NCBI GenBank assembly: GCA_903859705.1
Contig: CAIONQ010000079.1
Coordinates: 1-64,000 of the forward strand
DNA from: an uncultured Chthonomonas sp.
GTDB taxonomy: Bacteria; Armatimonadota; Chthonomonadetes; Chthonomonadales; Chthonomonadaceae
Length of the DNA stretch: 64,000 bases
Direction of reading: 5' to 3'
Position 1 is the first letter of the stretch, and the number at the start of each line of letters is the position of its first letter. Position numbers and translations under genes: made by a program. A model generated the notes under the pieces. It was given only the letters and a program-made list of their open reading frames with translations. It was not told where the DNA came from and made no database searches. Shown here piece after piece: positions 36,675 to 58,001 of this stretch.

Positions 36675-39600
36675 CTATCGCTGATTACTTGCAGTTGAGT
36701 AGAACTGCGGCGCGATTGTTTCGTAGTAGAGATCGGTTGTGTTGGAGCGTGTGCTGGTCCAGAATACCCACAGCTTATCCAGATATGGATCCTTGAACGC
36801 AGCCACGGTACCTTCGCTTACGGCCTGATCGGTAGGAAGCGGGTTCTCCGCAACGGTTTCATCTCCGTTGGACTGTGTGGAGCTCATTTCATCTCCCCAC
36901 GCTACGGTGTAGACGAGATTACCGGAGCTTTGCACAGAGTTTGTAGCCGGGTTGTAGTACGAGTAGGAAATTCGTACTGTTCTGCCTTCTGCAATCTCCG
37001 TGAAGTAGATGCGGCCGCGTACCCAATCGACCTCGTACGGACCAAGGCTACCCGAGCCCACCAGTGCAACTGTTGGTGCCGCAAACAGCTGCTGATTGCC
37101 GTTTGCATCGGCGGCACCCAGAGCCATTGGCCGTGGGAGCTTCACCATCAAGCGCATCGACTTGTAGTAGATAGTTGACTTAACGGTTCCGCTCGGATCG
37201 TTCTTGCGATACAGAACCCACATACGATCCAGTTCCGGAGCAGACGACGGCGAGTTGAACACCACCTGCGGGAAGTGCAGGTTGTAGCGCGGGTTTGGCC
37301 CTCTATCCAGCACGACCACGGGGGTGGTATTGCTGCCAGGAGAGTCTACAGCCGGGCGTGGTGCAAACACCGGATCATTTGCCCACGAGGACACTGCAAG
37401 AGTTGGCCGATAGATGTTGGTATCGTCTCTCGAAGATGAGAAACGCATGACATATGGCTGATAGCTTGCAAGCACCGTATCGTTGATAAGTGGTGCTACC
37501 TGCGGGAAGGTGACCGTACCAGAGCGCGTATCGACCACTACTTGTCCACCGCTGAGCCCGTTGGCTGCCGGTGTTACTACACCGGTATCATCCATGCTGA
37601 GCGCTTCGTAAGTGATAAGGCCAGATGCCGGATCAAACTTACCGATCTGTGGGCTGGCAACGTTTGTACTTGTTACCGCTTTACTCACCGGATCCAGAAC
37701 AAACTGGCGGTTGAGATGCGAGTACGTTCCGGACGTGCCCTTGATGTAATCGATAGAGATGGAGCCGATGGTATCACTTGGAAGTAGCGTTCCGTTTACG
37801 CCGTTACCGATCTGCCAGAAGGCATCTCGGGAAGCGAAGGTATTCGATGTACCGACGCGGGAGAGAACTTCCTGAGTTACATATGGGAATGGCTGCAGGC
37901 TCAAGGCACCGAGTGTGCCTCCAGTACCGCCAGTGCCGCTTCGGTTAATTACGTAGCGTGAGTAGAGAATCTCAGGACGCTTGCGGCCAGCAAGTGTGCC
38001 TGTGAATGCTACATCGATGCAGTCGTAAGTTTGACCGAACTGAACTACGTGCCTGTAAACCGGTGCCGCATCGCTTTGCGATGTGAGGGAGCCAGGCAGC
38101 GGAAGCTGCGTATCGGTACCCCACGGATTGGCGGTGAAGGCCTGATTCAGGTTTGTTGACGAGGCAACGTTGTAGTACAGCTGAGTGTTGCTGCCCGAAC
38201 CGGCATGCCAGAACAGGAACAGGAACTTCTGCGCCGGGAAGCCGTTACGTGCAGGAAGCTTCACCAGGAGTGGCTTAGGAGCGCGCTTGGCCAGAGACGG
38301 ATCGTTCATTAAAGAGAACGTTGGTCCCTGTGGTGCGCCTGCGATACCACCAGAGGTGCCGACTGGCTGCCAGAACGTTCTGGTATCTGTAACGGCAACC
38401 AGGTTGCTGTTTGTGCCGGTATTGGTTTTATCTACCGAACCCTGCCAGAACAGATAAGCTTCCTTATCATTTGCGTTTGGCAACCCGTACCCACCAGAGA
38501 GATCAAGTGAGGGCGCCACTGCCGGGCTGGTGAGGCGCATTGTTTGCGCCTGGACATCACCGGTAAGGAATGGCGGCTTGAATAGCCCGATAGTTGCGTT
38601 GTTCTGATCTGTTGTAGTAGATGGGAACAGGTACTGCGTTGTTGCCGGCGTGCCTGGCCCGCTTGTTCCGTAACCGATGAACGTGGTTGGATTAGTCCAC
38701 CAGGTTGCATTTGGTCCAGAGTTGGCGAAGTTAAAGTCGCCAGAGAATGCAGGATACGTGCTTGCATCGAATGTGTATGGTGCAGCGAGCGAGCTTGCTG
38801 CCAGGGTCCATTGCGCATTCGCTGCTGGCGTGTTGGACGCCGAGCGGTTGGTTGACCAGTACATCCACATTTGGCGTGGATCCAGGTTGGCTGCTACGGT
38901 ACCAGGCGCCATCCACACTGCGGGCAGTGTATTGGCTCCGCTGTATCCGCCAGGAACCGGCAGATCTACCTGCGGCAGCGTGCCTGTGGTCCAGCCCTGT
39001 GTTAGCCTGGATTCACGAACGGCTGCCTTCAGTCTGAAGGTAGGATCCGTGTGCGTTTCCAGTAGTGAGCCGCTTGCGGTGATATTGAGCATGTTGTCGT
39101 TATCAACGCCAGAGGTGTAGCCGGCAGAGGCTGCCAGCCATTCTCGCCACTGCGCCGGAGTATTGTCTTCGAAGATGTTGACATCTGCCGAGTAGGTGCC
39201 GACCGGCGTACCTACCGGAATAGCCAGCCCTATCTTTGGAGATGTAAAAACGCTCACCGTTTGAGGGCCAGAAGCCGATGCGAGCGAAGTAAGTATCTCC
39301 GGTGCATCGTGTGGCTTATCCGGCACTGTAAGCTGATGACCTACCGGATCGCCAGGACGCGGCTTGCTTACAACAGGCTGCGGCTGTACACCATCTGCCC
39401 AACCGACTACGCCGAGGTTCAGCGCGTTAGTTGAGATGAGTGACTTGTTTAGATTGTTAACCGTTACAATATCGTTGCCATATACATATGGGTTGACGAT
39501 TGGCCACATCGATCGCTCGATGAGGTACGGGTTGGACACCGATGGATTGTTGTTGAGACTGATGTGATCCAGCGTGCTTACGATACCGATGTTGCCTACG

Positions 39601-42600
39601 CCAGCGCCCGTGCCAAATGCCGCTGCAACCAGCGGAGATACGGACAGGTTGTTGACCTGATCGCTGTTGAGACGCAGTGCAACGGACTGTGTGGCAGTTG
39701 GCACCGCAGTTGCAGAGTGAGCGTATGCAGATATTGCTGCGCCGTTGACACCAACTAGTTTGGCAACGCGAGGGTTAACCAGGTTGATGTTGCTATCCGA
39801 GATGACAGTGAATGGCCGGAAGAACTGACCAAGGGTGTTGCTATCCGGATCGTCCCATGGGGCGGGCGTATTAATTGCGCCAGCCAGCAACGGGGCATCT
39901 TTAGAGCCGGTTGGTGAGAACGGAATTCGGAATGCACCTGCAGTGAAATCCGAATAACCGGTACCGTGCGGCAGTTTACCCACATCAACCGTTGTTTCCA
40001 AAACGCGCATTCGCACACTGGGAGCTACCGTAAGCCCCATATCAAAATCACGATGGGCTTCCTGGCTGGTTGCAATGGCATTAGAGCCGTTGCGGCCAAG
40101 CAGCAACTGAAGGCGAGCCGTACCGATGTTCGTTACCGATGTGGTGGACGTGTTCGGCGGGATAACCCTGATCTGCATCTGCGAAGTGTAGCCGGCAGCC
40201 GGGAAGGCGAGAGCATCGCCCGGGTTCACCGGATCGCCAGTGGTGGTCTGGATTGGCCCAAGAACCGGATCGTTGGTGGCGCTGAGGTTGCCGCCACGGA
40301 TAAGCCCACTGATTCCCACATAACCCTGACCGAAGTTGAAGGAGCTTCCATCCGGCAGTAAGCCACTGGTGTAACCGCGGTTTACATTAGCAGGCTGGTA
40401 CTTGGGTACCTGAACCTTCATCTGGATGGCTGAGGGCTGGATTTTACGAGAACGGATGACATCCGTATCGGGATCCGGGTTCAGCGTTGGATTCTTATCG
40501 TGGAAGATAGGCGGAGCCAGCGTAATTGTTGAGTGAATGGCATCCTGACCGCTACCGTTGGTGATGGTAAGGGCGTTGTCGTTCAAACTCGGGTAATCCG
40601 TTGTCTCCAGATTATTGTTTGGTAGCTGTTCCCACGGTAGCGGGTTCATTACCGAGCTTGGGCCACCATACCAGTGCGGTGGCTGCGTTACTACCTGAAC
40701 CTTGAGCCCACCATTGGAGCCGTTGTAACGGCTGATGGCAGATCTATCGGTAAGGAAGATCGCATTCACTGGTTTGCGAGATCCGTTGATCGCCTGGTAG
40801 GTTGCTGCAGATCCATCGGACAGTAGGCCGAGGGGAGCAAACACATCCTTAATAGGAGACAAGGAGCTTGCAGCTACATTGCCTGTAACCGACTGGCGGT
40901 TGCCATTGCCAAGAATTTCCCCGATGCTGGATGGGGAGCGATTAACGCTGCCAACCCAGCCGATAATGTTGTGGTTATTGGTACCGGTAAGATCGATGCT
41001 GCCATCACCCGTGTAGCTTCGTACCGTAAGGCCAATCGGGTTGGTTATACCGATATTGCGGCTGGCGGTAAGGCGGGATGGGTTTGCGATTGGCACCCCT
41101 CCGCCCGGAAGCGATGGTGTAAGATCGAAACCAGACCAGTTTGTTTGCCCTGCACTCAGGAAGTTGGAGTAGTTTGTGGTATCCAGGTTGCTTCCGTTGT
41201 TGTTATAGGCTTGCTCGATGGATGCCTGAGCGGTAACTTTGTATCCTGCTGTGCCTGGCGCAAATGGTGAGCGTGTGCTTGGGTTAATAAGCACTCGCAC
41301 CTTGGCAACCCACGGATATACGCTATCGGTTGGGCCAGTTAGCGTTTTCATGACTCCATCATCGGAACCAAGCCCGTAGATCTTCAGGTTATTGTGCTCG
41401 CCACCTGTTAGGCCGTTGTCATCAGGCCAGCCTGCCGGTGATGCTACACCGCCGGGATAGTAGCTTGAAACCCTGAGGCTTCCGCTGGCAGGAATGGTAA
41501 TTGGTGCTGCGTTAGGCTGCGTTAGTGTGAACACCACATTGATAGTGGGTGCACCATTGCCAAAGACCTTCTTAGTATTATCCTGTGGATGCGCATGGTA
41601 GATGCCAGCCGCAGAGATATACAGATAGTCTCCCCAGTCTGCTGCGTAGATATCACCGGTTACATTCGATGTTGCAGGGTTTGCAGTGTGCGAATATGCA
41701 TTGCCGGATTCATCTCGCAGGGGCGTTTCTCGGACGCTTGGCGGGCCAGGTGCCGGCGGGTTGGCGGTTGGGCCAAGCGATATTGCGTTAAAATCTGCCC
41801 GTGTGTACAGGTTAACGGTACGGAGATCAATACTCAGGCTGCCAACGCCGGCCCGTGCCTGCGGGGGCTCGCCAGTACCTAGTGTGCTGCCATCCTGGTT
41901 AGGACCGGTACCTACGCCATATGCTCGGAGCTGACCATCTTCGCTGCCGGAGAAGAGCATTCCGTTCGCGAGAACCAGGTTTGCATCGCGGCCAAGTGCA
42001 GAATCAAACTGTGACCAGATGACGGACAACGTTGGTACGCCGCTGATGGTTTCAGGGTTGGCTCGTAGGCCCCACAGCGCGCCGGCGCTATCGCCGAACA
42101 CAATGGCTGGTTGGGAAACCCCGATGTTGCCATCGATGCTGTAATCATATTGCGTTTGCAGTTGCGTGATGATTGGCGCGCTGGTGGTCATGGAACCGGT
42201 GATGGAGCCACCCGTTGCACGCAGAGTGGTTGTTCCTACCCCGGTAGCCGCTGCATCGAGCATAAGTACAGACGCAGTGACCTTATCCAGAACATACACC
42301 TGATCTCGACTGGAGCCTGGCAGGTTGGCCTGGGTTATGGCGAGTGGCGTCATTGCACCGAAATCGAAGGTGCTGGTATCGTTTGGATCGCTCGGGTATG
42401 GTGCGTTGGATGTAAACGGATAGATCCAGCTCGGCGCATTGGCTGCCGAGAGGGAAACCTCTGGAAGGCAATAGACGCGCCCGGCTGCTGTGAAGTAAAC
42501 ATACTTCGAACCACCGGTTGCACTGAATATTGTTAAGCCACTGATATCCGACAGGCCCTGTGAGGTAACCAGGGGATTGGCGCCGTTAGCCGGATACTGC

Positions 42601-45221
42601 CAGTTGTTGCGAGCCGCGTTATTCCAGTTTGCGTGCTGGCTACCATTGACGTTCGGGATACCGATGCTATCTCTGATGGGATTGATGGCATATACGTAGC
42701 CATCCAATGCCGGCAGAATGAATGGATCCCCTGCAAGGTTGTTGTTTACATAGTTCGGATCGTAGGCAGGCGTTTGGGCAAAGCCCTGCTTGCCTGTATC
42801 ATCCAGAATGGTGTTTACGCCGGATCTGCCCAGGAAGTGGTAAGCATCTGCGCCGAAGTGCGGATACGTCCATATACGCTGGGTGGTACCGGGCAGTGGT
42901 GTTGCACCAGAGATAGGTGAGTAATCACCACGGCCACCAGCATCAAATGCGTAAACTCGGCCATCGTTGCTCGGAACGATGAGCATCTGCGGACCGGTGG
43001 AATTTCCGGGATCATCGATCAACAGGGGGCTGGCTGTAATGCCGCCCATACCTGAGATGTTGGATCGGTTTGCGGAAATGTTCCAGAAGCCTGGCAGTGA
43101 CGGATCCTGACTTACTTCCCCATCATAGTAGTGATCGGCGCCAATAACCTGATCTGGCACTGCTGCCGCACCGAACGACGTAACCGGGTAGGTACCGGGA
43201 TCATATTTCAAACCAAATGCTGTGGCTGCCGCCGACGCATTTTTGTAGTTTGGATCGTGATACTGGTAGTAAGCTGCTGCAAACTGAGCGTTTGTATTGT
43301 CGTCTGCTACCTGTATTGGGCGATACGAAGGATATACCCAGTAAAGATCGGTAGTGAGCTTGGTTCTATCGCCAACGGGATCAAATGCATAGATTCGCCC
43401 ATTCGACAGCCCCGAAGATGACGTAACGAAGTACACCATGGGGCGTACTGCACCATCGCGGCACCTGACGTTGGCAATGAGTGGAGATGCTACGCTAACG
43501 TTGCTGCCATCAATCAGTAGATTGTTTGTATCTGGCAGGCCCACATACCGCCATCGCACTTTATCAATGGATGTTATCTGAACACCACCCAGTAGGGCAT
43601 CGCCATTCTGATTATCCAGGCAATAGAACACGGGTACTGTTTTGGTTGCAGTTACATCCGGTATGAGCGGATTGTAGTTTGGATTTGGAGTATTTGCCGG
43701 GTTGGGAGGTGATGGCAAGTACTGATTGGGATCTACGGGCAGGTTTGGATCCTGCGGGACAAATACAGATGTATCTGGAATGGTTTCTTCGCGAGCGAAG
43801 TAGATAAGCGGCAGTTTCTCCGTTGTTGCAATGTTGGAGTTGAATGCGTTGTTAAGCTTTGAAGTGGCAGCAACAGGGGCGAGAATTTGACCGGTGGCAC
43901 CAATAGTGCCAAGACCAAGGCCGCCAGAAGTGCTGTTGCTTATTGGCCGAAACCGTACTGCATCTGCTGTTACAAGCGGAGTAGCATCGTAGTTCTGCGG
44001 ATTGCCGCTACCCGGGTTTACATCATCTGGCGTGAGCGTATAGATGGTTACTACCAACTGGTCGCCAGGAGTGCCATCGTATGGGAAGGCTGCCTCGGTT
44101 TGCCCGGGTGCCGCGAGTTTAAACCATCCGCCCGCCTGCATGTTAACCATGTATACGCGGCTATTACTTAACAACGTAAGCCAACCAGAGAAAGAACCGG
44201 AAGGCGTTACTGTATTGTGCAGGCCATCTACAGCAGAAGTACCCCAGCTAACGCGCACAAACGCGCGGGAAACGCTGGGATGGTAGGTGCCGTTGATGAG
44301 CGTGCCGCTACCGGGCATATGTACATCAACGGCATAGTTACCAGCTGCTGCGTTGTACGCGCCCATCGAATAGATGGCCTTAAGCTGCGTAATCTGGAGG
44401 CGTGCATTGATCTGCTGTACGGTTTCCTGAGCGCCGCCAGGGAGTGCTGCAAGTTCTGCATCCGTTGCGGGGCTGGTAGAACCATCCGATCGCGTAACTA
44501 CAAAATCGCTATGCACTGCGGGCGTATAGGCATAGTCCTGATTCCAGGGATAGTCTGAACTTGAGTTTACCGAGTATCCGCCATAGGCAGAGCGGTAATC
44601 AATATCGTTACCGAATGCATCGGTTGCACCAGGAAGTATATCCGGAAGCTGCCACTGAAGGCCAGCCACAATCGGCCCGTAGGTCATGTGTGGCATCTGC
44701 TGCGGATCGTAGGTTCCCTGGGCACCCGTTAGAATTGGCAAGAACCTGGTTTTTTTGTTGAAGGCATCTTGAAATTGCGTGCCGCCCGGGTACAGCGGAT
44801 CATCGTTGGGCGAGAAGCTATAGTTCAGGCCCGTACCGACTGCCGGCCGCGTTGCATTATCGACAATGATTTGCCCCGGCGTTGTGCTGGGATTGGTTGT
44901 TAGATCCGAGGTGCGTGGGAACACCCATCGCGGAACAGCAAGCCCCGGGTTGTTGTTAAAAACGGAATCAATACTGGGTGGGCCGCCAACGGGATCTGTG
45001 ATCAGATATCCATTATATCCCGGACGAAACGCGTTGATGTTGACGCCGGAAGGAGAGCCAGTGACGGCTACCGTAGCTATTCCGCCACGATCCCCTACCC
45101 AGTCGATTGTATCGAATACCGGAAGCTGTGCATGCGCGCGCCCCGCCACTGCCATAAGCAGAGCGGCCGCGAGCGTTCTCCAGCCGGATTTTCGCCACAA
45201 TTGAGCAGTCATATGCCGCAT
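36675..45221 (-). CDS. giant secreted multi-propeller protein, last gene of the type IV pilus array
   Basis: A 2848-residue exported protein (signal TLAAALLMAVAGRAHAQ), Asn/Thr/Ser/Pro-rich and nearly free of cysteine. The first 500 residues contain a beta-rich domain (AGNYAVDVHMPGSG, SRAFVRVSWG) of the kind found as a golvesin/xanthan-lyase-like module. About residues 600-1110 hold PQQ-like propeller strands (DGRVYAFDAGG near 754, DGYVYAINP near 844, DGQLRAYGVG near 1097). The middle is Ig/cohesin-like beta. The C-terminal 750 residues repeat a W-x-(F/Y)-W-x-S-x-R...LYY strand pattern reminiscent of sialidase-type propellers. ATG at 45221 with GAGG eight bases upstream is preferred over an in-frame start at 45389. 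Function is unknown. Its place after PilX- and PilY1-like genes suggests a pilus-tip or surface adhesin. Confidence 0.7.
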   Translation of the reverse strand: MRHMTAQLWRKSGWRTLAAALLMAVAGRAHAQLPVFDTIDWVGDRGGIATVAVTGSPSGVNINAFRPGYNGYLITDPVGGPPSIDSVFNNNPGLAVPRWVFPRTSDLTTNPSTTPGQIIVDNATRPAVGTGLNYSFSPNDDPLYPGGTQFQDAFNKKTRFLPILTGAQGTYDPQQMPHMTYGPIVAGLQWQLPDILPGATDAFGNDIDYRSAYGGYSVNSSSDYPWNQDYAYTPAVHSDFVVTRSDGSTSPATDAELAALPGGAQETVQQINARLQITQLKAIYSMGAYNAAAGNYAVDVHMPGSGTLINGTYHPSVSRAFVRVSWGTSAVDGLHNTVTPSGSFSGWLTLLSNSRVYMVNMQAGGWFKLAAPGQTEAAFPYDGTPGDQLVVTIYTLTPDDVNPGSGNPQNYDATPLVTADAVRFRPISNSTSGGLGLGTIGATGQILAPVAATSKLNNAFNSNIATTEKLPLIYFAREETIPDTSVFVPQDPNLPVDPNQYLPSPPNPANTPNPNYNPLIPDVTATKTVPVFYCLDNQNGDALLGGVQITSIDKVRWRYVGLPDTNNLLIDGSNVSVASPLIANVRCRDGAVRPMVYFVTSSSGLSNGRIYAFDPVGDRTKLTTDLYWVYPSYRPIQVADDNTNAQFAAAYYQYHDPNYKNASAAATAFGLKYDPGTYPVTSFGAAAVPDQVIGADHYYDGEVSQDPSLPGFWNISANRSNISGMGGITASPLLIDDPGNSTGPQMLIVPSNDGRVYAFDAGGRGDYSPISGATPLPGTTQRIWTYPHFGADAYHFLGRSGVNTILDDTGKQGFAQTPAYDPNYVNNNLAGDPFILPALDGYVYAINPIRDSIGIPNVNGSQHANWNNAARNNWQYPANGANPLVTSQGLSDISGLTIFSATGGSKYVYFTAAGRVYCLPEVSLSAANAPSWIYPFTSNAPYPSDPNDTSTFDFGAMTPLAITQANLPGSSRDQVYVLDKVTASVLMLDAAATGVGTTTLRATGGSITGSMTTSAPIITQLQTQYDYSIDGNIGVSQPAIVFGDSAGALWGLRANPETISGVPTLSVIWSQFDSALGRDANLVLANGMLFSGSEDGQLRAYGVGTGPNQDGSTLGTGEPPQARAGVGSLSIDLRTVNLYTRADFNAISLGPTANPPAPGPPSVRETPLRDESGNAYSHTANPATSNVTGDIYAADWGDYLYISAAGIYHAHPQDNTKKVFGNGAPTINVVFTLTQPNAAPITIPASGSLRVSSYYPGGVASPAGWPDDNGLTGGEHNNLKIYGLGSDDGVMKTLTGPTDSVYPWVAKVRVLINPSTRSPFAPGTAGYKVTAQASIEQAYNNNGSNLDTTNYSNFLSAGQTNWSGFDLTPSLPGGGVPIANPSRLTASRNIGITNPIGLTVRSYTGDGSIDLTGTNNHNIIGWVGSVNRSPSSIGEILGNGNRQSVTGNVAASSLSPIKDVFAPLGLLSDGSAATYQAINGSRKPVNAIFLTDRSAISRYNGSNGGLKVQVVTQPPHWYGGPSSVMNPLPWEQLPNNNLETTDYPSLNDNALTITNGSGQDAIHSTITLAPPIFHDKNPTLNPDPDTDVIRSRKIQPSAIQMKVQVPKYQPANVNRGYTSGLLPDGSSFNFGQGYVGISGLIRGGNLSATNDPVLGPIQTTTGDPVNPGDALAFPAAGYTSQMQIRVIPPNTSTTSVTNIGTARLQLLLGRNGSNAIATSQEAHRDFDMGLTVAPSVRMRVLETTVDVGKLPHGTGYSDFTAGAFRIPFSPTGSKDAPLLAGAINTPAPWDDPDSNTLGQFFRPFTVISDSNINLVNPRVAKLVGVNGAAISAYAHSATAVPTATQSVALRLNSDQVNNLSVSPLVAAAFGTGAGVGNIGIVSTLDHISLNNNPSVSNPYLIERSMWPIVNPYVYGNDIVTVNNLNKSLISTNALNLGVVGWADGVQPQPVVSKPRPGDPVGHQLTVPDKPHDAPEILTSLASASGPQTVSVFTSPKIGLAIPVGTPVGTYSADVNIFEDNTPAQWREWLAASAGYTSGVDNDNMLNITASGSLLETHTDPTFRLKAAVRESRLTQGWTTGTLPQVDLPVPGGYSGANTLPAVWMAPGTVAANLDPRQMWMYWSTNRSASNTPAANAQWTLAASSLAAPYTFDASTYPAFSGDFNFANSGPNATWWTNPTTFIGYGTSGPGTPATTQYLFPSTTTDQNNATIGLFKPPFLTGDVQAQTMRLTSPAVAPSLDLSGGYGLPNANDKEAYLFWQGSVDKTNTGTNSNLVAVTDTRTFWQPVGTSGGIAGAPQGPTFSLMNDPSLAKRAPKPLLVKLPARNGFPAQKFLFLFWHAGSGSNTQLYYNVASSTNLNQAFTANPWGTDTQLPLPGSLTSQSDAAPVYRHVVQFGQTYDCIDVAFTGTLAGRKRPEILYSRYVINRSGTGGTGGTLGALSLQPFPYVTQEVLSRVGTSNTFASRDAFWQIGNGVNGTLLPSDTIGSISIDYIKGTSGTYSHLNRQFVLDPVSKAVTSTNVASPQIGKFDPASGLITYEALSMDDTGVVTPAANGLSGGQVVVDTRSGTVTFPQVAPLINDTVLASYQPYVMRFSSSRDDTNIYRPTLAVSSWANDPVFAPRPAVDSPGSNTTPVVVLDRGPNPRYNLHFPQVVFNSPSSAPELDRMWVLYRKNDPSGTVKSTIYYKSMRLMVKLPRPMALGAADANGNQQLFAAPTVALVGSGSLGPYEVDWVRGRIYFTEIAEGRTVRISYSYYNPATNSVQSSGNLVYTVAWGDEMSSTQSNGDETVAENPLPTDQAVSEGTVAAFKDPYLDKLWVFWTSTRSNTTDLYYETIAPQFYSTASNQR

Positions 45222-45315: not shown

Positions 45316-48300
45316 TTAATTGGGTCGCTCACTGAAGGTCGGCTGCTCCAATATGTAAGTGGAGGCACCGCCAGATGTGGGAGAGCCAATGGCTCTCTTA
45401 ATCGGAACTTGCAGTGGTACCGGCGATATGGTTTCTTTAGGTGTCATCCATACAATTGCCGAGGTAGCTGAGTTTGGCACCAGCATCTGCCCGGCATTTG
45501 CATACAGTCGAGCTGCAAGGGATGTATACCCGGACGGGTAGGCCGCCGTATTGTAGTACACATCGCCTCTAACTTCAACCACTTCACCTCGCACCTGGCT
45601 CGGTGCAGCGTTTAGCAGGTTCAAACCATTACCGAATGCCGCCACTATGTTATCGCTGCCTGTATAGCGGTTAGTGATAAGATAGTGCGGATAGAACATA
45701 TTTGTGGCCGGATAGTAATCCGAAGCGCCCAGGCGCTGAATGCTTGCACCCTGCAGTGGCCGGCCTGTCATCTTAAGGTAATCGGTAGCATACAGGGCCC
45801 AGACGACTATGAGCTCACCGCTCTTAACGCCTGGCACTACCGCCTGCTCCGGAGATGTTGTTTCATAGCATCCGTTGGCATCGCATATGAGAACTCTCAG
45901 CTGAGTGTTGCCCAGGGCATCCAGAGTTGAGAACTCGGTTGCATAGCTAATGCCATTTAACGGAACGTGTGTACCGGTGTTAGGGTTGAACAAACCCGTA
46001 TAGCGTGCTTGAAGTGTGCCATCGGCTACACCGGCAGCGCGGCGAAGGATCACGATGGAACTGCCGCTTGCATCTACTCCGGGAATTGTTGTACCGGTAA
46101 ACCCAGGATCTCCACCGCCCTGAGCAGCGTTATCGACTGCTGAGAGAATGAACAGACTGGATGTTCCCGGCCCAGTTGGAACTCCGAACTGGGTAACTGT
46201 TCGATATCTGTAGCTCTTGTTTTGTTCCGAGGTGGTTTTGGACACATAGATCAGCTGATGCAACATCGTTACCGATGGCTGACCAGGTGAGGTCATGACG
46301 ATCGGATTGCCGTTTGCATCGTATATGTCTACCAGTTCCAGAAGGCGGTTATTGCCACTATCTGCAATCAGGTAATGGTAAGAGTAGTAGTAGCCTGTGT
46401 AGCTATATACATTTCCTGTTACCGGACTTGTGAACGCGATTGCGTTGCTGCCGATGAGGGTGTAGGTTTGCACATCCATAGGGCTGTTGAGCGTAAATGG
46501 ATCCCCAGGGCGCAGGAAATGGAGACCATCAGAGAAGCTGTGTATCTCCCATATAACCACGCCGCCCTTATCGGTCATCATAACCCGGCTGTTGCCAGTA
46601 TCCGCAACCACATAGTTATTGAGGTTTGAATGCTGTGCCATAGCCGGGCGAGCCAGCGAGATTTTTGCGGAAGCTATATTGCCGTTGGCACCCAGTGCAC
46701 CACCTACTACAGTTTGAGTTTGCGTGGCATCCATGGTCCATACAGCATCACCCGCGTGGTTAACCTCTATAAGGCGGTTGTTATCCGTTATCAGGGTTAG
46801 CTGATTATCGAATGTAGTTATTCCACGTGGCCCGCTCACAACCACTACATCTGTAGTGCCGACTGGCGGATTGGTGATAGCTTGATCGATACCCTTGTTG
46901 GACACGGTATCCCACTGGACGGGTGCGGTTTTCAACCGCAACGTGCCATCGGACTTATAGAGCGATGCCTGGCTGCCATCTGATGGCATGCCTGAAAGAT
47001 CCAGGGCGGCGATGCTGCCATGCTGCGTACCGTAATACAGTGTATTGCCAATGACGGTTGGTCCACTTGCCGGCTGCACATCTGGCAGGGAAGGGATGAC
47101 CGGGGCATTGGGATCCACGGCACCAGTGCGGCGAGTGTGCATTGGCACAATCATCCACCACAGCACGTTATCCAGCAGGCCGTAGCCGTTTGCATTGTAC
47201 TGGAGGTCGCCAAGCGTTTGTCCGCCTTGCCTGACCAGGAAGGGCTCGGCGAGGTTAAAGGAATCGCCACTGGAACCCTGCTGGCAGTTAAAGATGGATA
47301 CGGTGCTTGTTGCGTAATCAACCGTGAAGTTGGTGCCCTCAGTAAGTGTAATAGTGCGTGCACGTTGACCCGGTACATAATGGACGATATCGATCTGCTC
47401 CAGGGTAACCGGCCGCGTGCGCTGCCCATTTGCCTGATTAGAAGACGTATCCTGCATTACGATGGGAGAACCATCCGTTTGCTTGGGGATAAACGTGAGC
47501 GATGGGTTCGATCGGTATGCCATCAGAACCGTGGCATCCCACTCGTTAACTGCACCACCGGTGCCGTACTGCATGTGTGCCCAGCTTGTTTGGTAGATCA
47601 CACCATTGCTGTATGCAGGCGTACCGATAGATTCGAGATCGGACACAATCATCTTCGGCACTGCATTGAAGGTGCCGTTGAATGTATCGCTGTTTATAAG
47701 GCGAGCAGGGAGCCCCTGGCTACCACTGTAGATGCCTTCATCTGGAACGGGGCCATTGGGGAAGAACATCCAACGAACCGCGGGACCTTCTGGCTTGCCC
47801 CCACCTGCGATGGTGGCGCTTGTATCTTGAAAATGGTTACGATATGCATACAAACGGTCGGCAGCAGGAGCATCGCCAACGTTTACATAGATGTTATCAT
47901 CCTGAGATAGTGCTGCGGAACCCGTAAAGAACAGTGGTGTAACGTTTGCATTGTTACCGTAAGGGTTTGCTACCCGGCTTACTCGGAACATGTTGCTTAC
48001 ATCACGGTTGACAATTGGGTTGGTAGCTGCAGATACCAGATCTTTCAATGGCAGAGAGGGCCAATCAACGGTATAGTCTGCAGAAAGCGTATCTCCCGGG
48101 TTAATTGGTGGGTTGACCACTACCAGGGTATCGTGCTGATTCTGAATGCCCGCTGGAAGATGTGAGACTATCTTAAAGCTATTGGCGGATGCGCCGTTTG
48201 GATCGTAAGTAAGATCCGTTGTAACCCCATTGCTTGTTCTGTGTACTCTTGGGAGCATTGTGCGCTGCCCTGCAAATGGCAACGATGGTGCGTACCACGG

Positions 48301-50452: not shown

Positions 50453-50472
50453 CCCGGAGGAACCCCTCCGGG
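50453..50472 (-). other. intercistronic hairpin before the PilY1-like gene
   Basis: Perfect 8-bp stem CCCGGAGG / CCTCCGGG with a 4-base loop in the gap between the PilX-like and PilY1-like genes. The following minus-strand bases (TGTACCGCTTTTAAG) are only partly T-rich, so partial termination or transcript protection are both possible. Confidence 0.5.
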
Positions 50473-50489
50473 CACTCGCTTCGAAATGG

Positions 50490-53400
50490 TTACGGTACTA
50501 CAGGGCTATCCGGCGGGCCGAAGTACAGCATGCCAGGGCATACTGGGAGCTTGGGCACTGCAGGAAGCGTTTGGAACACCGGGAACACACCTGCTACCGA
50601 CGGTGCAAAGTACCTTGCCCTGATTGCGCTATTCTGTCGCAGAGCGATAGCAGTAGCACCAGATCCGATCATATTGATATCGCATCTGCCCAGCCGAGGC
50701 TGGTAGTAGGGCAATGGAAGAGTTGGGTCGTAGATATATTCTATGCCCCTGCTCACACCATCCGCGATCTCTTTTGGAGTTCGGTTCTGCAGATGTTGAT
50801 CTGGAATACTGATGCCAGAAGAGCCATGTGTTGCAGGGATGTAGCCCCATCGGCTGAACCATGCAGCCTGATCTCCAGCAGAGGCGCTGTAGTTCTGTGA
50901 GATGGCACCGAAGAGTGTGATCTTCACATCCATTGGCTCGTTGTAGAACGGGAACGGCGTTCTGTGAACGTTGGAGCTATCCATAGGATCATAGATTGGG
51001 CGTGTGCCTGTTGCCAGGAAGTTAGCGCGAGTATCGTTAGGATTCTGGTTAAACGAATAACCGGGGATCACAAAGAACGAGCGCTCCTGTGCATACAGCA
51101 TTGCTTCTATTCTGATATCCAGGGGTGCCACCATGGTGCCGCTCATCAGGTAATCTTCTGTTTCGCTGAAGCCGGTTACACCCAGGCTGGTAACTGCTGC
51201 GGTTGCCGTTACATCCTTGGTGAAGTGGAAGACGTTAGCATCACCCAGCAACGAGAGCAGCGGGAACAGTGCGGTTCCACCGAAGTTCGGTGTAAACAGC
51301 GTTCCGGCATTTGTACCTGTTAGCGGGAATACACGCTGATCAAAGCCAGGGTTAACTTCTCTGGTGTCTCCAACGAAGGCACCGCCCTGATACCGCAGGC
51401 CAACTGGATACGTTTCTGCAGGAAAACCGTTGGGCATTACGCCCGGCCAACCACCAGCACCATTGAAGCGATACTGCGATGGTGCCGACGCTGGCAGTAA
51501 TCCCGATATATCGGCTGCCGGATTGATTGTAAGGTTGAACGCGGATGCGCCACCACCGGAGTTATTCTGGTTTGCAGCTTGCCGTACGAACATAAACAGT
51601 GGGCTAAGCGAGCCACCTACCCGATAGGTAGCCGGGTTTACACCGAATGCTACTTCAGGATCGAATGATTGTGTATCTGTTGGCAGGCCAATGTACTGCA
51701 GATCGGCATTGTTAAGCTGCTGCGTCCACGCTGGGCCCTGGCTGGGTGGCGCCATGAACATTGTGGTGTTCAGGGTCACATAGTCCTTGGCGAGAATGGA
51801 GCATGTAGAAGCGCGCTCATACGTAATGCCACCGGCATCTTTGTAACCATCGGTTCGGATAATGTTGCCATCAATATAGGCGGTTCCCCCACTCACGATT
51901 GTGAGGTGAACTCGGCCAAGATGATCGCCACTTGCGCTTGTGGCATCACTAACGGCGCCATAGTAACCTTTAACACGTACGTTACCTTCGGCCATAAGCA
52001 CCAGGTTTACACCGTAAGACTGCTTATCTCCGGGGAAGGTACCGGTGCGCGGAATAGCTCCAGCAGTACCTGCGGGTGCATCGCCATCATTGGCAAGCGC
52101 CGGCAGTGTGGCTACCTGGCCATCCGGGAAGGTGTAACTAATTGGGCCGAGCCTACGCAGGGGAATATCTACAACATTACCACCACTAGCGGTTACGCCT
52201 GTGCCATCTGGCTTGCGGAAACTCTTGCCATCACTACGGGTCATGCGGATATGATCACCCAGCAGTTCCACCAGTACGCCTGGTGGCCGATAGAACGGGC
52301 CACTCCAGTAATGCTGAGCAAACGTTGCTCGCGGGTTCAGCCAATCGGCACGCAGGGAGTATCCGCCGGTTCCGTTAGCCGTTTCTGGCTGCAGATCGGA
52401 ATTGTTATCAACCCATACACCCGTGCCCCACCCATAAAAGCCTGTATTAGTAGCGCCGTTCCAGGTTCCTGAGTACATAGTTGCTGCGCGGTATCGGTTA
52501 ATGCCGCTGCCGGCCACTACGCCATCGATTGTAGGAACATCGAGATACGGAATTGCGCGCTGATAGCCATAAACATCTGGTGCCTGGCTGCCATCACGAA
52601 CAATGCCCCCGAATGATACAAACTGCGGGCTGGAACTTGGGAATACGAAGTTGTTTGTTTGGGTACTGCCAACTGGCGGGCCAGTTGTCGGCGTTGTAAC
52701 CGTTACCTGTTGATCCTGATCATTCAGAATGCCATCTACAAGGACATCCTGGTTGGGTGCCAGCACGATATCAGCAGAAGCAAGAATGTTCTCGTTTGAG
52801 ATATTAGGATCGCCGCCACGCGGCCCCTCAAAGAAGCGGATCTCGCCACCGAGGCGCAGCACGCCATTGGAACGGATGGGCGCACCAAACAGGACATCCG
52901 TGCCATTTGTACCGAATGTGCTGCCCTGAATGGCAGGATCGCCAAGTACCATTGCGGTATCTGCGTAGCCCTGGCCGGCACCGCCCTGAACACTGTTTGT
53001 AACGGCAGGAATACCCAGGAAGTTATCGTAGCTTCGGTGATCCTTGCCGGTAAACCAGAACAGGTAGTCTGTAAGGCCTATCTGCTTGTAGGCGATAAGC
53101 TCGCGGCGCTGCCGTGGCGCGTTGCCATTAGCGGCAAACACGGTTGGGTCGAAGCCCTGTGCGAGATCGCCAGGTCGGCCGACGGCTTCGATGCGCATGT
53201 ACTGTGAGCGTGGATCATCTGGCTTGGGATCGTAAACTACGCGAACCAGTGCACGACCCCCCTGGAAGAACAGTCGGGTGAAGCCCTGCTGAAGCCAGCG
53301 GTAATCCGGATCTGTAACCCCATTGTTAGGGCCAATGGGTGTTGTGGGATCTGGACGCCAGTCGGCACCTTCCGGGCTGGAAGTGAAGTTTGTATCGCAG

Positions 53401-53606
53401 TAGCGAATAGCGGCTTCGGCAAATGACTCTGCGCTTTGATTTTGTTTGCTGCGTGCGGCAGCATTGAGGTTTCGGCCAATCTGAGCAACAAATATGCCGC
53501 CGATGAGTAGCAGCACGAACATTATTGCTATCGCCACAACGAGCATCTGGCCGCGTTTCGCGGTGTTTCTGGCCGATATGGTTCTTGTGCGATTGTTTTC
53601 AGACAT
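50490..53606 (-). CDS. PilX-like giant minor pilin/assembly protein
   Basis: A 1038-residue protein with a basic start, KRGQMLVVAIAIMFVLLLIGGIFVAQIG as the membrane helix, and an alpha-helical stalk rich in Ala and Gln (AAARSKQNQSAESFAEAAIRYCD). This is the PilX_N pattern. Position +5 after the putative Gly cleavage site is Val instead of the Glu of most pilins, as in GspK-like tip subunits. The remaining 950 residues are beta-rich. They include strands like GNVRVKGYYG and GTAYIDGNIIRTDGY that could form a beta-helix. Classical PilX is about 170-200 residues, so this is five times larger. ATG at 53606 has GGGAG eleven bases upstream; 53663 is an alternative. It lies between the PilW-like and PilY1-like genes. 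Confidence 0.68.
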   Translation of the reverse strand: MSENNRTRTISARNTAKRGQMLVVAIAIMFVLLLIGGIFVAQIGRNLNAAARSKQNQSAESFAEAAIRYCDTNFTSSPEGADWRPDPTTPIGPNNGVTDPDYRWLQQGFTRLFFQGGRALVRVVYDPKPDDPRSQYMRIEAVGRPGDLAQGFDPTVFAANGNAPRQRRELIAYKQIGLTDYLFWFTGKDHRSYDNFLGIPAVTNSVQGGAGQGYADTAMVLGDPAIQGSTFGTNGTDVLFGAPIRSNGVLRLGGEIRFFEGPRGGDPNISNENILASADIVLAPNQDVLVDGILNDQDQQVTVTTPTTGPPVGSTQTNNFVFPSSSPQFVSFGGIVRDGSQAPDVYGYQRAIPYLDVPTIDGVVAGSGINRYRAATMYSGTWNGATNTGFYGWGTGVWVDNNSDLQPETANGTGGYSLRADWLNPRATFAQHYWSGPFYRPPGVLVELLGDHIRMTRSDGKSFRKPDGTGVTASGGNVVDIPLRRLGPISYTFPDGQVATLPALANDGDAPAGTAGAIPRTGTFPGDKQSYGVNLVLMAEGNVRVKGYYGAVSDATSASGDHLGRVHLTIVSGGTAYIDGNIIRTDGYKDAGGITYERASTCSILAKDYVTLNTTMFMAPPSQGPAWTQQLNNADLQYIGLPTDTQSFDPEVAFGVNPATYRVGGSLSPLFMFVRQAANQNNSGGGASAFNLTINPAADISGLLPASAPSQYRFNGAGGWPGVMPNGFPAETYPVGLRYQGGAFVGDTREVNPGFDQRVFPLTGTNAGTLFTPNFGGTALFPLLSLLGDANVFHFTKDVTATAAVTSLGVTGFSETEDYLMSGTMVAPLDIRIEAMLYAQERSFFVIPGYSFNQNPNDTRANFLATGTRPIYDPMDSSNVHRTPFPFYNEPMDVKITLFGAISQNYSASAGDQAAWFSRWGYIPATHGSSGISIPDQHLQNRTPKEIADGVSRGIEYIYDPTLPLPYYQPRLGRCDINMIGSGATAIALRQNSAIRARYFAPSVAGVFPVFQTLPAVPKLPVCPGMLYFGPPDSPVVP

Positions 53607-53664
53607 AGCGTATGTCGCTCCCTGCATCCTGTATGTTGGTACTGAACAGTTCTTAGATGACATT

Positions 53665-55881
53665 TTAGTGTTGCAGGTTCCTTACTTTAACCTTATCTGT
53701 AAGGCGTGTCACCTGGGGTTTGCCAGAACCGATATCATACAGCCGCATCTCCAGAGTGAAGTTCATCAGATCACGGGTCATGTAATCAAATTTGACAACA
53801 TCACCGCTCTGGTTCATCTGGAAGTTGTAATACACTTCAACTGGATCCGCGGTTGCGCTACCATCGACGATGCCCGTTGCCGGGTTCGTTTTGAAAATCG
53901 GCAGCATATGATCACCAACGGCGGGCTGTGCCGTGGTAGGATCTGTGCCGTTATTAATGGTTAGGTTACCTGCGTTGTACTGAGAGCCATCTGGCTGATT
54001 ATCGAATTCTACGTAGCCGGCCAGCAGGCTTGGGGGCGTTGAACCGGTAACACCGCCAGGAATATTGGCATTGTTTACGTAGTTAATTTTGTACTGGTTG
54101 GGACCAGTGAAGCCACTCGCAGCCGATACGCGAGTGTACTGTACGCGATGACCGTAGTGTGTGCCGCGGCGTTGATCTGGGCCAAATATCTGCTCGGTAC
54201 CCGGAACTATTGATACTGTAGCCAACCCGCTTGCTGGATTGAGCGGCGAGATGATTCCGGCCAGGTTCAGAGTTGGGTACCCCGTGCTGGAGAGCGGCAT
54301 GGCAGTAAGCATAAGGAATCTTCTTGCGCCCGGACCAAGGGGACCAAATGCCGAGTATGCCGTGTTAATATCGTTGGGACTGTACCTCTGTGGTGCAGGC
54401 GCGAAGGCTGGCGACGGCCCATGCACAACTGTGGTTGAAGGATACGCGAACGATACCAGCCCCTTATTGCTACTTACAGTAAAACCAAGCTGTGTGCTGG
54501 GGTTATTGAACACACCGTTTGCCAGCTGCGGGCTTACATCTGGCAGGGCATCCGGGTTGGGCAAAGCCGCACCAGGTGCTATACCGGTAATGTGAACGAT
54601 GCGGAAGGCAGCATTTGCCGCGCTGTAGTAGCCTTCGTACAGATCCAGCGGATTTCGCTGTGTGGGATCTGTGCCAGAGCCGTTATCTCTATACAGGAAA
54701 ACGCGGTAGTTGCTGGACCAATGATCGTACTGCGATACAAAGGTTGGTGAAATAGGATAGGGCGACTCGTTGCCTGAGTTATCCAGGTTGGTAGCTACAC
54801 CCGGATCATTCTGCACAAAAGCCGGCTTGAAAGTAGCGAGCGGGCTAATAGTTGGCAGCTTGGTAACGGGATCGTACACAACCGCATTGGTAAGGCTATC
54901 ACGTAGCAGGGAAAGCAGATCTACCTTATCTGTGCGTACCAGCGAGGTAGATACCGCTCGCCAGTTCTCCCAGATCTGAACTTTGCCATCTCCATTGAGG
55001 TCTTTCCAACCCGGAACAGCCCAGAGTGTGGACCCTGCACCGGCTTCTTTACCGCCTGCAAGCGAATTATCGTAGAAGAAGTTTGGATCATGTAGGATGA
55101 TTGGAGCTGTCTTCGTGTCATCGGGTGCAGTGATATCCGTACCGGTGTGAAACAGCTTCAAGTTTGGAATGAAGTGCTGCGTATTTGCCGGATCTGGGAT
55201 ATAGGTGGTGACTTCTGCCTTGTACAGTGTTATCGGATTGTGGCTATCGCGAATCTTGCCCGTTGGGCGCAGGTTCGCTGCCGTGTTGGCGTATTCGTAA
55301 TAATTGAAATACGGCTTTAGAGGCGTGCCATTCTGGCTCAGGATGCCGGGGCCAGATACATTGTTTGCGGTTGCGAGAAACAGCTTGCCGAGCAGGATGC
55401 CATTGGCAAGTGGCAGCGCAACTCCCTTTTGTTCCGGAGCCGCTGAATCTGTGTATGGCATACCGGTTGTTGGATCGATTGGCAGTGCCACGGATCCATT
55501 TGAAAGGTATGGATTCTGATCCAGCGAGTGAGCCGGCGGCACATACTCCATCTGGGTGAACAGCGTGGGTACCACCACTGTAGCGCCGGTGCTATCGGTA
55601 GTCCAGATATTGACAGGGTTGCCTGTTGGATCCATCACATATTGTGCGGACGACAGGATCTGGCTAACCTGCGACATGGCATCTCGCGCAGCTGCCTGGC
55701 TTTCTGTTTGTGTGGTTGCGCGGCTCGTAAGCTCAATGCTGCTTATCAGAGGTTTAAACACGATAAGCATCAGGATCGAGGTAAGCGCGATAACTACCAG
55801 CAGTTCGATCAGCGTAAATGCGGATCGGCGTGTGGCCAGCGCTCTGGTTCTCGATATTCTTTTTTTGAGGTTGCAGTTCAT
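53665..55881 (-). CDS. PilW/PulJ-like large prepilin
   Basis: A 738-residue prepilin with a 21-residue basic leader and class III signal RRSA-FTLIELLVVIALTSILMLIVFKPLI. The residue before the cut is Ala instead of Gly, and Glu5 is present. The helix continues as SSIELTSRATTQTESQAAARDAMSQVSQILSSA, the PilW/PulJ pattern of an amphipathic stalk. The 650-residue globular part has no recognised domain. Typical PilW proteins are 200-350 residues. It ends at LTDKVKVRNLQH, with the next gene starting 58 bases downstream. Its order in the array (after the PilV-like, before the PilX-like gene) supports the assignment. Confidence 0.75.
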   Translation of the reverse strand: MNCNLKKRISRTRALATRRSAFTLIELLVVIALTSILMLIVFKPLISSIELTSRATTQTESQAAARDAMSQVSQILSSAQYVMDPTGNPVNIWTTDSTGATVVVPTLFTQMEYVPPAHSLDQNPYLSNGSVALPIDPTTGMPYTDSAAPEQKGVALPLANGILLGKLFLATANNVSGPGILSQNGTPLKPYFNYYEYANTAANLRPTGKIRDSHNPITLYKAEVTTYIPDPANTQHFIPNLKLFHTGTDITAPDDTKTAPIILHDPNFFYDNSLAGGKEAGAGSTLWAVPGWKDLNGDGKVQIWENWRAVSTSLVRTDKVDLLSLLRDSLTNAVVYDPVTKLPTISPLATFKPAFVQNDPGVATNLDNSGNESPYPISPTFVSQYDHWSSNYRVFLYRDNGSGTDPTQRNPLDLYEGYYSAANAAFRIVHITGIAPGAALPNPDALPDVSPQLANGVFNNPSTQLGFTVSSNKGLVSFAYPSTTVVHGPSPAFAPAPQRYSPNDINTAYSAFGPLGPGARRFLMLTAMPLSSTGYPTLNLAGIISPLNPASGLATVSIVPGTEQIFGPDQRRGTHYGHRVQYTRVSAASGFTGPNQYKINYVNNANIPGGVTGSTPPSLLAGYVEFDNQPDGSQYNAGNLTINNGTDPTTAQPAVGDHMLPIFKTNPATGIVDGSATADPVEVYYNFQMNQSGDVVKFDYMTRDLMNFTLEMRLYDIGSGKPQVTRLTDKVKVRNLQH

Positions 55882-55967
55882 GCCTGTCTCTGCCTTATTC
55901 TAAGGTGGAGCTGGGCGCTATAGTGCACGCGCCGCCCATTTGGTTCTTAGTTGTGGATGCCTGCGCC

Positions 55968-58001
55968 CTACTGGGAAGGCTGCTGTACCAGGATGGTATC
56001 GGTATCCTGTATTCGCCAGCGCTGGGCATCTCTCCATGCCACACGAGACTTCAGGGACAATCCGGTTACGTTGTTGACGCGCCTGCCTGTTTGTTGTGCA
56101 GAGAACGCGGTTGCTCCGATTGAAGGGGCAATATCAATAAATGGCAGGTTGAGATCGGGATCGAAGAGGCTTGGATCTGCAGAGATCTGGAACTGCATAC
56201 TGTGATAGGGCTCAATCCTAGTTGTGGTGTAGAACTCTCCCAGCATTACTGATTTGCCAGCATCGCAGGGTGCGAAATAGATTCGTGTAGCTTTGCCAGT
56301 AACTCCATCTCCGATGAAGTAGTGCCGGAAGTCTACACTCCCTGGGGCTGTAGCCTCACGGTAGTGCGCGGCTGCCTTTTGAACCTGTACGCCCCAATCT
56401 TTCTGAGTGCGATAGAAAATTCGAAGGCTTGCGCTCTGGAGACCCTGCGCTTCAACCACGGACTTATTAAGGGTAATCACTCCCGTTTTTTGATCTACGG
56501 TAGTTGGGCCAGAGGGATCAATTGTTAGGACACCGGTTCCCTGTGGAGAGTTCTGGTTGGTCCAATCTCCTACTTCCTGGCCGGTTGCTACGTTGTATAC
56601 AATGATATCGGGAGTTCGGTTTGAACCATCTCGATATATTCCATTGTATGTGCCGAGCGCCGGGTTGAAGTTGTTGATTGGATTGGAGTTATCCAGTACA
56701 TCGCCACCGAGGCGAAGGAACGGCACCGAAAGCGGCATTGTGTACGGAGACTGTGCCGGTACGCTGCGATCATCCTTCATAACATGGTTATCGAAGATCC
56801 GATAATCTACACGGGCTACCAGCGGTTTGGTACCGCTTGAAGTTACCTGCGGCTGATTGTGCCCGCTTGGGTTGAAAATCAGGATTCCCGGGTTTACATT
56901 GTTGCCGGGGCTTTGCTTGCTGTACCAGGCATATTCGTAAGCATCGTTAGAGCTCCATGTTGGAACCCCGCCTGCTTCTACCGTGTTATTTGGCAGCGCA
57001 AGTCTGAACTTGCGGGATACATCTTCGCTTTCGCGCACCATTCCATATGGGTAGGTAACATTTGCAGCAGGGGGGAACCCGGCCAGATACATCGCTGAAG
57101 GCACCGTCATCCCGTTACCTTCATTAATATCCGAAGGATACTGGCCATTGTATAGAGGCTGCCACACGGGAGCCGGCAGCGCTCCGTTTGTTCCGGCAGC
57201 TACATCTGGCACTGTAACTACCGTGCTAACCACACCGTTCGGCGGGTAGGCATTGGGCTGGAACTGTACCGAAATTGTGCCGCCCGTGCTCACATAGTAA
57301 TCGTAGCTAATTGTGAACTGGCGAAACGCTATTGGGCGCGCAGGATCGATTAACCTCGGGAAGAATGCCACCTTAAGGTTATCGTAATCGATAGCGTATT
57401 CGGCTTCGTTGCGCAGCACAGGTGTAGCGGAAGGATTTGAGATGGTGGGCACGGATGCCTGAATGGTTCGCTGCAGTGCGGCGCCATAAACGAGCAGACT
57501 ATCCGTTGTGCCAGTAAACGTGTTTTCGACTGGTCCGTATTCTAGCGGATGAATTCCGCCGTATCCCTGGCCGGTAGTACCGGAAGCAATTGGAATACGG
57601 AACGACTCGCCCATGACAAAGCGATACGGGTTAATGTTTGAGAAGTACCACGGATCTTTACCAGCCAGGCTTGGATCGGTGGCTACAAGATCTGCATTAA
57701 ACGAAGGAAGCACTGTGCTGGACAGGTTGCCGGCAGCATCCAGCGCGACGATGGCTTCGGAGGCATTTTCTGCGGCCAGCGCCTTATCCGTTACCTGACG
57801 GTTGATGGCTTCTGCTGCGGTTACTTCGGCTGTTCTTGCGATACTCAGAAAGCCAGGAGGAAACAGGCGCACGATGGCCAGGATTCCAATGAGCAGCACC
57901 ACAAGCACAACCATGATCTCGACGAGCGAGAAGCCGGAGTGCACTCGGCGCTCCACCTTTCGGCGGGTTTTGTTCAACTGGTTTGCGTTCATCATATCCA
58001 T
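55968..58001 (-). CDS. PilV-like large prepilin
   Basis: A 677-residue prepilin with leader MDMMNANQLNKTRRKVERRVHSG and the class III site SG-FSLVEIMVVLVVLLIGILAIVRLFPPGFLSIARTAEVTAAEAINRQ. Gly-1 and Glu5 are both canonical, and the FSLVEIMVV(L/A) plus IGI form is typical of PilV. The bulky C-terminal part (about 620 residues) contains beta-rich segments and no recognised domain. Classical PilV is under 200 residues. ATG at 58001 is chosen because it starts the short basic leader (AAGGG ten bases upstream). The frame is open to 58157 but unlike a prepilin leader. The next gene downstream is the PilW-like gene. Confidence 0.75.
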   Translation of the reverse strand: MDMMNANQLNKTRRKVERRVHSGFSLVEIMVVLVVLLIGILAIVRLFPPGFLSIARTAEVTAAEAINRQVTDKALAAENASEAIVALDAAGNLSSTVLPSFNADLVATDPSLAGKDPWYFSNINPYRFVMGESFRIPIASGTTGQGYGGIHPLEYGPVENTFTGTTDSLLVYGAALQRTIQASVPTISNPSATPVLRNEAEYAIDYDNLKVAFFPRLIDPARPIAFRQFTISYDYYVSTGGTISVQFQPNAYPPNGVVSTVVTVPDVAAGTNGALPAPVWQPLYNGQYPSDINEGNGMTVPSAMYLAGFPPAANVTYPYGMVRESEDVSRKFRLALPNNTVEAGGVPTWSSNDAYEYAWYSKQSPGNNVNPGILIFNPSGHNQPQVTSSGTKPLVARVDYRIFDNHVMKDDRSVPAQSPYTMPLSVPFLRLGGDVLDNSNPINNFNPALGTYNGIYRDGSNRTPDIIVYNVATGQEVGDWTNQNSPQGTGVLTIDPSGPTTVDQKTGVITLNKSVVEAQGLQSASLRIFYRTQKDWGVQVQKAAAHYREATAPGSVDFRHYFIGDGVTGKATRIYFAPCDAGKSVMLGEFYTTTRIEPYHSMQFQISADPSLFDPDLNLPFIDIAPSIGATAFSAQQTGRRVNNVTGLSLKSRVAWRDAQRWRIQDTDTILVQQPSQ

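What the first reader, a model, noticed from the sequence alone, without database searches (positions are those of the whole stretch)
36675..58001. Giant PilV-PilW-PilX-PilY1-like minor-pilin block
Five consecutive leftward genes keep the order and N-terminal signatures of the Gram-negative minor-pilin operon (pilV, pilW, pilX, pilY1), but the products are 677, 738, 1038, 1686 and 2848 residues, about three to six times the usual size for the pilins. They follow pilT, pilC, pilD and two small prepilins in a 27-kb array with a single clear terminator at its end. If the block forms a tip complex, the priming tip would carry many hundreds of kDa of globular domains, a pilus type I do not know to be described.
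Basis: partly seen in the sequence, partly recalled or inferred. Interest (0 to 1): 0.78.

Follow-up and report, generated by a model that had tools for sequence, protein, structure and literature searches.

The report
Giant pilus-tip proteins of Armatimonadota
Across nearly the whole bacterial phylum Armatimonadota, the genes for retractable hair-like pili are followed by the same five unusually large genes, which most likely build a very large tip for the pilus; neither this set nor this tip was found in the literature searched here.

Summary
Five leftward genes at 36.7-58.0 kb encode 677, 738, 1038, 1686 and 2848 aa, follow pilB-T-C-D and two small prepilins, and end at a strong hairpin terminator. 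They are not a quirk of one genome. The same order recurs across Armatimonadota: C-B adjacent in 64/64 loci, C-B-A in 45/45, E-D-C in 59/61. Gene C relatives occur in 236 of 251 sampled genomes of the phylum. Genes E and D are true type IV prepilins. C has no Pfam pilin match, but its predicted structure has a 70-residue N-terminal stalk helix, it lacks Glu5 like tip pilins, and its best PDB match is ComZ, a tip pilin of Thermus with an inserted beta-solenoid (Z 12.2; next 7.5). B and A are not pilins: both carry Sec signals. B is a DUF4159-like domain plus a predicted PQQ-type propeller with a PilY1-style Dx[D/N]xDGxxD motif; A has a PQQ propeller and other repeats. Neither matches the PilY1 family. 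Best reading: a type IVa pilus whose priming/tip complex (about 740 kDa) pairs ComZ/PilX-like giant pilins with a non-homologous, PilY1-like two-protein cap. Tip location, assembly and ligand are inferred, not shown.

The parts
62612..63892 (-). pilT, retraction ATPase (426 aa)
   Evidence: Pfam T2SSE 9.5e-52; a separate pilB with MshEN + T2SSE lies immediately upstream outside the window
61324..62580 (-). pilC, inner-membrane platform (418 aa)
   Evidence: Pfam T2SSF 2.4e-70
60169..61245 (-). pilD, prepilin peptidase (358 aa)
   Evidence: Pfam A24_N_bact 4.4e-31
59269..60027 (-). small prepilin 2 (about 252 aa)
   Evidence: N_methyl 2.5e-7; weak SBP_bac_10/DUF1559 0.002
58185..59168 (-). small prepilin 1; exact start uncertain
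   Evidence: N_methyl 3.5e-8
55968..58001 (-). gene E: giant PilV/I-type prepilin, 677 aa
   Evidence: N_methyl 1.4e-5; TIGR02523 PilV 1.7e-4, N-terminus only and below cut-off
53665..55881 (-). gene D: giant PilW/J-type prepilin, 738 aa
   Evidence: N_methyl 1.8e-6; TIGR02599 2.6e-7, N-terminal 60 aa only; conserved C-terminal VRN motif
50490..53606 (-). gene C: giant PilX/GspK/ComZ-type pilin, 1038 aa, no Glu5
   Evidence: AF2 pLDDT 81, helix 7-76; best PDB match ComZ, Z 12.2
53379..53588 (-). gene C stalk helix, residues 7-76
50937..53069 (-). gene C large inserted beta-rich region, about residues 180-890; limits approximate
   Evidence: limits inferred
45316..50376 (-). gene B: Sec-exported DUF4159-like domain + PQQ-type propeller, 1686 aa
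49336..50250 (-). gene B DUF4159-like alpha/beta domain, residues 43-347
   Evidence: DUF4159 in 14 of 20 homologues, best 1.4e-8; model
46801..49272 (-). gene B propeller, residues 369-1192, with long insertions
   Evidence: VIA Z 22-28 to PQQ/BamB-type propellers
49105..49131 (-). gene B motif DLDNDGNAD = Dx[D/N]xDGxxD, residues 416-424
   Evidence: exact in 32 of 47 homologues
36675..45221 (-). gene A: Sec-exported multidomain protein with PQQ propeller, 2848 aa
   Evidence: profile matches to PQQ propellers; Golvesin_C and propeller models in homologues
36608..36648 (-). intrinsic terminator after gene A
   Evidence: 12-bp hairpin + UUUU, z -6.5

Best explanation
This is the minor-pilin/tip module of a retractile type IVa pilus, specific (as far as could be searched) to Armatimonadota. 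PilD cleaves the prepilins E, D and C. C, which lacks Glu5, caps a starter complex with D and E, as GspK/J/I and PilX/W/V do. B and A leave through Sec, dock on C in the periplasm and become the outermost part, taking PilY1's role. PilB then extends small pilins under this complex through the secretin, and PilT pulls it back. The large globular parts form a tip of about 740 kDa that binds a surface or polymer, probably with calcium affecting B. Shown here: gene content and order, pilin N-termini, predicted folds of C and of most of B, phylum-wide conservation, and core pilus genes on both sides in one genome. Inferred: complex formation, tip position, export through the secretin, calcium binding, ligand.
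For: Order pilB-pilT-pilC-pilD-pilin(s)-E-D-C-B-A across families: E-D-C 59/61, C-B 64/64, C-B-A 45/45. C in 236/251 phylum genomes, 175/179 high-quality; B in 56/61 relatives, a few of these only weak matches. In G038, A is followed directly by pilM (PF11104, 7e-56), so B/A lie between pilus genes. C: G at -1 and Q at +1 in 64/65, hydrophobic residue at +5; 70-residue helix; ComZ the top PDB match, Z 12.2 over 267 residues, next 7.5. ComZ is argued to be a tip pilin whose solenoid is inserted in the pilin sheet (PMC6561018). B: DUF4159 + propeller + PilY1-style motif; PilY1 is a propeller with calcium motif 1 that caps PilX (PMC13190605). The four sampled genomes with D of only 315-354 aa lack B and A next to C; every genome with B has D of at least 509 aa where D was found. 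A separate T2SS with GspJ 333 and GspK 596 aa, and pilM plus a secretin (with unrecognised genes between), lie elsewhere in the genome.
Against: No complex was modelled or observed. B and A do not match PF05567. The calcium motif is also common in unrelated propellers and is lost in several close relatives. The C-ComZ match is structural only; sequence profiles find nothing. D and E folds beyond the N-terminus, the last 486 residues of B and all of A were not modelled. Whether a 300-kDa protein can pass the secretin on a pilus tip is unknown.
Confidence: 0.6

Rival explanations
1. E, D and C form the tip, but B and A are secreted or outer-membrane adhesins that are only co-encoded and never ride on the pilus.
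For: Both have plain Sec signals and no pilin stalk; propeller and Golvesin_C-type domains are common in surface proteins.
Against: Fixed C-B-A order across the phylum, B/A between pilin and pilM genes in G038, and small D only in genomes without B/A beside C.
Confidence: 0.25
2. The complex is mainly a DNA receptor for natural transformation, like ComZ/PilA2 of Thermus.
For: C resembles ComZ, which binds DNA (PMC6561018); ComEC is present in the genome.
Against: ComEC also rings in 10 of 14 control genomes, including E. coli. C is about twice the size of the compared ComZ chain with extra domains, and the B/A cap has no counterpart in the ComZ work read here.
Confidence: 0.15
3. The locus is a secretion pseudopilus that exports A and B as substrates.
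For: Pilin-type machinery beside two very large exported proteins.
Against: PilT and PilB in the locus, and a separate T2SS with GspD, GspJ and GspK elsewhere in the same genome.
Confidence: 0.07
4. The large sizes are assembly or gene-calling artefacts.
For: The genome is a 179-contig draft.
Against: The same sizes recur in dozens of independent genomes: median E 631, D 673, C 966, B 1596 (n = 52-65), A 2780 (n = 17).
Confidence: 0.01

Closest known systems
PilV-PilW-PilX-PilY1 priming/tip complex of type IVa pili (Pseudomonas, Myxococcus; PMC7541494, PMC13190605)
   Same: Gene order of pilin types; K/X-type pilin without Glu5; large exported propeller protein with calcium motif 1 next to the X-type pilin; PilB/T/C/D beside it.
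   Different: Pilins much longer; no PF05567 domain; B's predicted propeller is PQQ/BamB-type, with DUF4159 instead of VWA; a second, larger cap protein A.
ComZ/PilA2 of Thermus thermophilus (PMC6561018; PDB 6QVI)
   Same: Large beta-rich insertion in the pilin fold of a tip-type pilin that motif searches miss; best structural match of C.
   Different: C is about twice as long as the compared ComZ chain and has more insertions; D and E are also enlarged; B/A cap.
Modular pilins (Streptococcus sanguinis PilB/PilC; PMC8179133)
   Same: Functional modules carried on pilins.
   Different: Reported maximum 860 aa in that InterPro survey, and counted as single proteins; here three pilins of one locus are enlarged together, phylum-wide.
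Verru_Chthon cassette proteins B/C (TIGR02598, TIGR02599)
   Same: Weak N-terminal matches of E and D.
   Different: Only the N-terminal 50-60 residues match, far under cut-off; C has no match to any NCBIfam cassette model.

Membership tests
Type IV pilin (E and D) | N-terminal class III signal with Glu5 (N_methyl) | tested here: met
   PF07963 above cut-off for both
K/X-type tip pilin (C) | Prepilin-peptidase-type site with small residue at -1, hydrophobic stalk, no Glu5 | tested here: met
   G at -1 in 64/65 homologues, V/I/L at +5; helix 7-76
K/X-type tip pilin (C) | Match to a known PilX/GspK sequence model | tested here: not met
   No family at cut-off; PilX_N 0.043 and GspK 0.033 in one homologue each
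ComZ-like pilin (C) | Pilin domain with inserted beta-solenoid, shared fold | tested here: met
   VIA Z 12.2, 267 residues, rmsd 3.9, next Z 7.5; predicted model only; homology by sequence not shown
PilY1/PilC (B, A) | PF05567 propeller family | tested here: not met
   hmmscan of B and A and their homologues; the genome searches are weak because no control genome rang over the cut-off
PilY1/PilC (B) | Calcium motif Dx[D/N]xDGxxD in the propeller | tested here: met
   residues 416-424, 32/47 homologues; motif also common elsewhere; binding untested
PilY1/PilC (B) | Fold of the solved PilY1 C-terminal domain (3HX6) | tested here: inconclusive
   Top matches are PQQ/BamB-type propellers; a family that is not listed is not excluded
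Type IVa pilus machine | PilB, PilT, PilC, PilD, PilM, secretin in the genome | tested here: met
   PilN/O not recognised by Pfam
Minor-pilin tip complex | Proteins interact and sit at the pilus tip | not testable with these tools
   needs complex modelling or experiment

The most novel reading that the evidence does not exclude
A phylum has replaced the PilY1 cap of its type IV pili with an unrelated two-protein cap of nearly 500 kDa (DUF4159-propeller protein plus 300-kDa propeller adhesin) and enlarged all three priming pilins with it: a convergent and much larger solution to pilus priming and tip adhesion.
Probability: 0.45. Interest if true: 0.75.

Novelty: new variant of a known kind. 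Interest (0 to 1): 0.62.

Why it matters
PilY1 is treated as the standard cap of type IVa pili in diderms. A conserved block without PF05567 but with the same layout would show which features of the cap are essential (propeller, calcium loop, alpha/beta head, docking on a Glu5-less pilin) and which are historical. It also gives a likely function to long uncharacterised proteins of a little-studied phylum, and tests how large a cargo a pilus tip and secretin can carry.

Tried and rejected
PilY1 family in the genome and in 61 relatives: no match, though no control genome rang over the cut-off, so the protein-level scans carry the argument (against 6, 30, 95). Verru_Chthon cassette as the family: only N-terminal matches of D and E, none of C. 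Sequence profiles of C against PDB: nothing. CBM35/36-like sandwich in C (residues about 618-828): Z about 7, at the level of unrelated matches, so not claimed. Consensus promoter/terminator scan: numbers at or below chance; the terminator was confirmed by folding. PilY1 structure 3HX6 is not among the 50 listed matches of B, which excludes nothing. ComEC as a hint of competence: not discriminating. Papers on Armatimonadota pili: the Fimbriimonas genome paper lists pil genes and 79 PulG-like genes and proposes attachment; the passages found there do not mention these giant proteins (PMC4072686). Searches for DUF4159 with pilin, and for the Verru_Chthon cassette, found no paper.

Full report
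Observation. The window lies in a 6.24-Mb draft genome of 179 contigs. Its closest named relative by gene C is a metagenome genome labelled uncultured Chthonomonas (61% identity), and the listed relatives are Armatimonadota or unnamed bins, with one record labelled Propionibacteriaceae that is probably mislabelled. From pilT down to gene A, genes are co-directional with gaps of 31-183 bp, and pilB lies directly upstream of pilT outside the window. After A there is a 12-bp G+C-rich hairpin with a U tail, z = -6.5. A single transcript is plausible but untested.

What the genes are. E and D carry Pfam N_methyl above cut-off. In this genome 68 places match N_methyl; the frames of D and E (744 and 738 aa) are the longest, and the next is 446 aa. 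C has no recognised domain, but its N-terminus is RG^Q-x-L-I-V-A followed by a hydrophobic stretch; in 65 homologues the -1 residue is G in 64, +1 is Q in 64, and +5 is V, I or L, that is, no Glu5, as in the pilin that caps tip complexes (PMC10191384). AlphaFold2 with 65 sequences gives pLDDT 81 and pTM 0.87, one helix from residue 7 to 76, then short strands and a long beta-rich region. Among PDB chains re-aligned by VIA-align 2, ComZ of Thermus stands alone (Z 12.2, 267 residues, rmsd 3.9); the next match has Z 7.5. ComZ is a pilin-like protein with a beta-solenoid inserted between the last two strands of the pilin sheet, missed by a pilin finder, and argued to sit at the tip (PMC6561018). 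D and E were not modelled.

B and A. Both begin with Sec-type signal peptides (sequence). B has DUF4159 in 14 of 20 homologues and propeller repeats of PQQ and NHL type. The model of residues 1-1200 (pLDDT 80, pTM 0.85) has an alpha/beta domain at 43-347 and a propeller at 369-1192 that matches eight-bladed designed propellers and PQQ/BamB-type propellers with Z 22-28. The motif DLDNDGNAD at 416-424 fits PilY1 calcium motif 1, Dx(D/N)xDGxxD (PMC13190605); it is exact in 32 of 47 homologues but degenerate in several Chthonomonadaceae. This motif occurs in many propellers, so it supports an analogy, not descent. A has a PQQ propeller by profile, and homologues show Golvesin_C and propeller models. 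Neither B nor A matches PF05567.

Conservation. In neighbourhoods taken from whole genomes and in 78 loci from named contigs, the order is pilB-pilT-pilC-pilD-pilin(s)-E-D-C-B-A. Where the locus is long enough, E-D-C holds in 59/61, C-B in 64/64 and C-B-A in 45/45; median lengths are E 631, D 673, C 966, B 1596 and A 2780 aa. C is found in 236 of 251 genomes drawn from the phylum, and in 175 of 179 good ones; B in 56 of 61 relatives, although in a handful the match is weak or covers one domain only. In the four sampled genomes where D is only 315-354 aa (G034, G048, G039, G053), B and A are missing next to C, and B has no more than a weak partial match elsewhere; in every sampled genome with B whose D was found, D is 509 aa or longer. 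In G053 a 560-aa protein with PD40 propeller repeats takes the place after C. In G038 the gene after A is pilM. These facts tie B and A to the pilus and link the size of D to the cap, though the exceptions are few and belong to three families.

Mechanism. The most economical reading is a priming and tip complex: C caps, D and E follow, and B and A dock on C in the periplasm and leave as the tip when PilB extends the fibre; PilT retracts it. The genome also has pilM and a secretin on one contig, and a separate T2SS with GspD, GspJ of 333 aa and GspK of 596 aa on another, so this locus is not the T2SS. The sum of the five precursors is 744 kDa. The ligand is open: surface polymer or polysaccharide is favoured because of the adhesin-like make-up, and DNA is possible because of ComZ. 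All steps of this paragraph beyond gene content are inference.

Novelty. Large pilins are known one at a time: ComZ, and modular pilins up to 860 aa (PMC8179133). No paper found in the searches describes this set, and the Fimbriimonas genome paper only counts pil genes. The library holds open-licence papers only. I therefore call it a new variant of a known kind: a type IVa pilus tip module of Armatimonadota with giant pilins and a PilY1-like but non-homologous cap. The scan of about 85,000 species returned relatives of C only in loci that look armatimonad, but that scan relies on two short motifs and only the best 80 were returned, so absence elsewhere is not shown.

Noticed in passing
6567-11684 (-): A 1705-aa ORF rich in TPR-like repeats with what looks by eye like a cysteine-peptidase-like (C39-like) stretch; not compared with any library.
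   Followed up: no
G000 contig C21 (L175): A canonical-looking T2SS gene set (GspD, GspJ, HHH-bearing GspK of 596 aa) in the same genome, useful as an internal size control.
   Followed up: partly
G000, 68 places genome-wide: Large expansion of N_methyl prepilin-like proteins (68 hits), many of 250-350 aa; Fimbriimonas reports 79 PulG-like genes.
   Followed up: no
L081:2605-4284 (G053): In a genome without B and A next to C, a 560-aa protein with PD40 propeller repeats and a signal-peptide-like start follows C, perhaps a smaller substitute cap.
   Followed up: partly
G034, G048 loci (L068-L071): Family f7 has C of about 1300 aa but small D and no B/A beside it; an extra prepilin lies between E and D.
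   Followed up: partly
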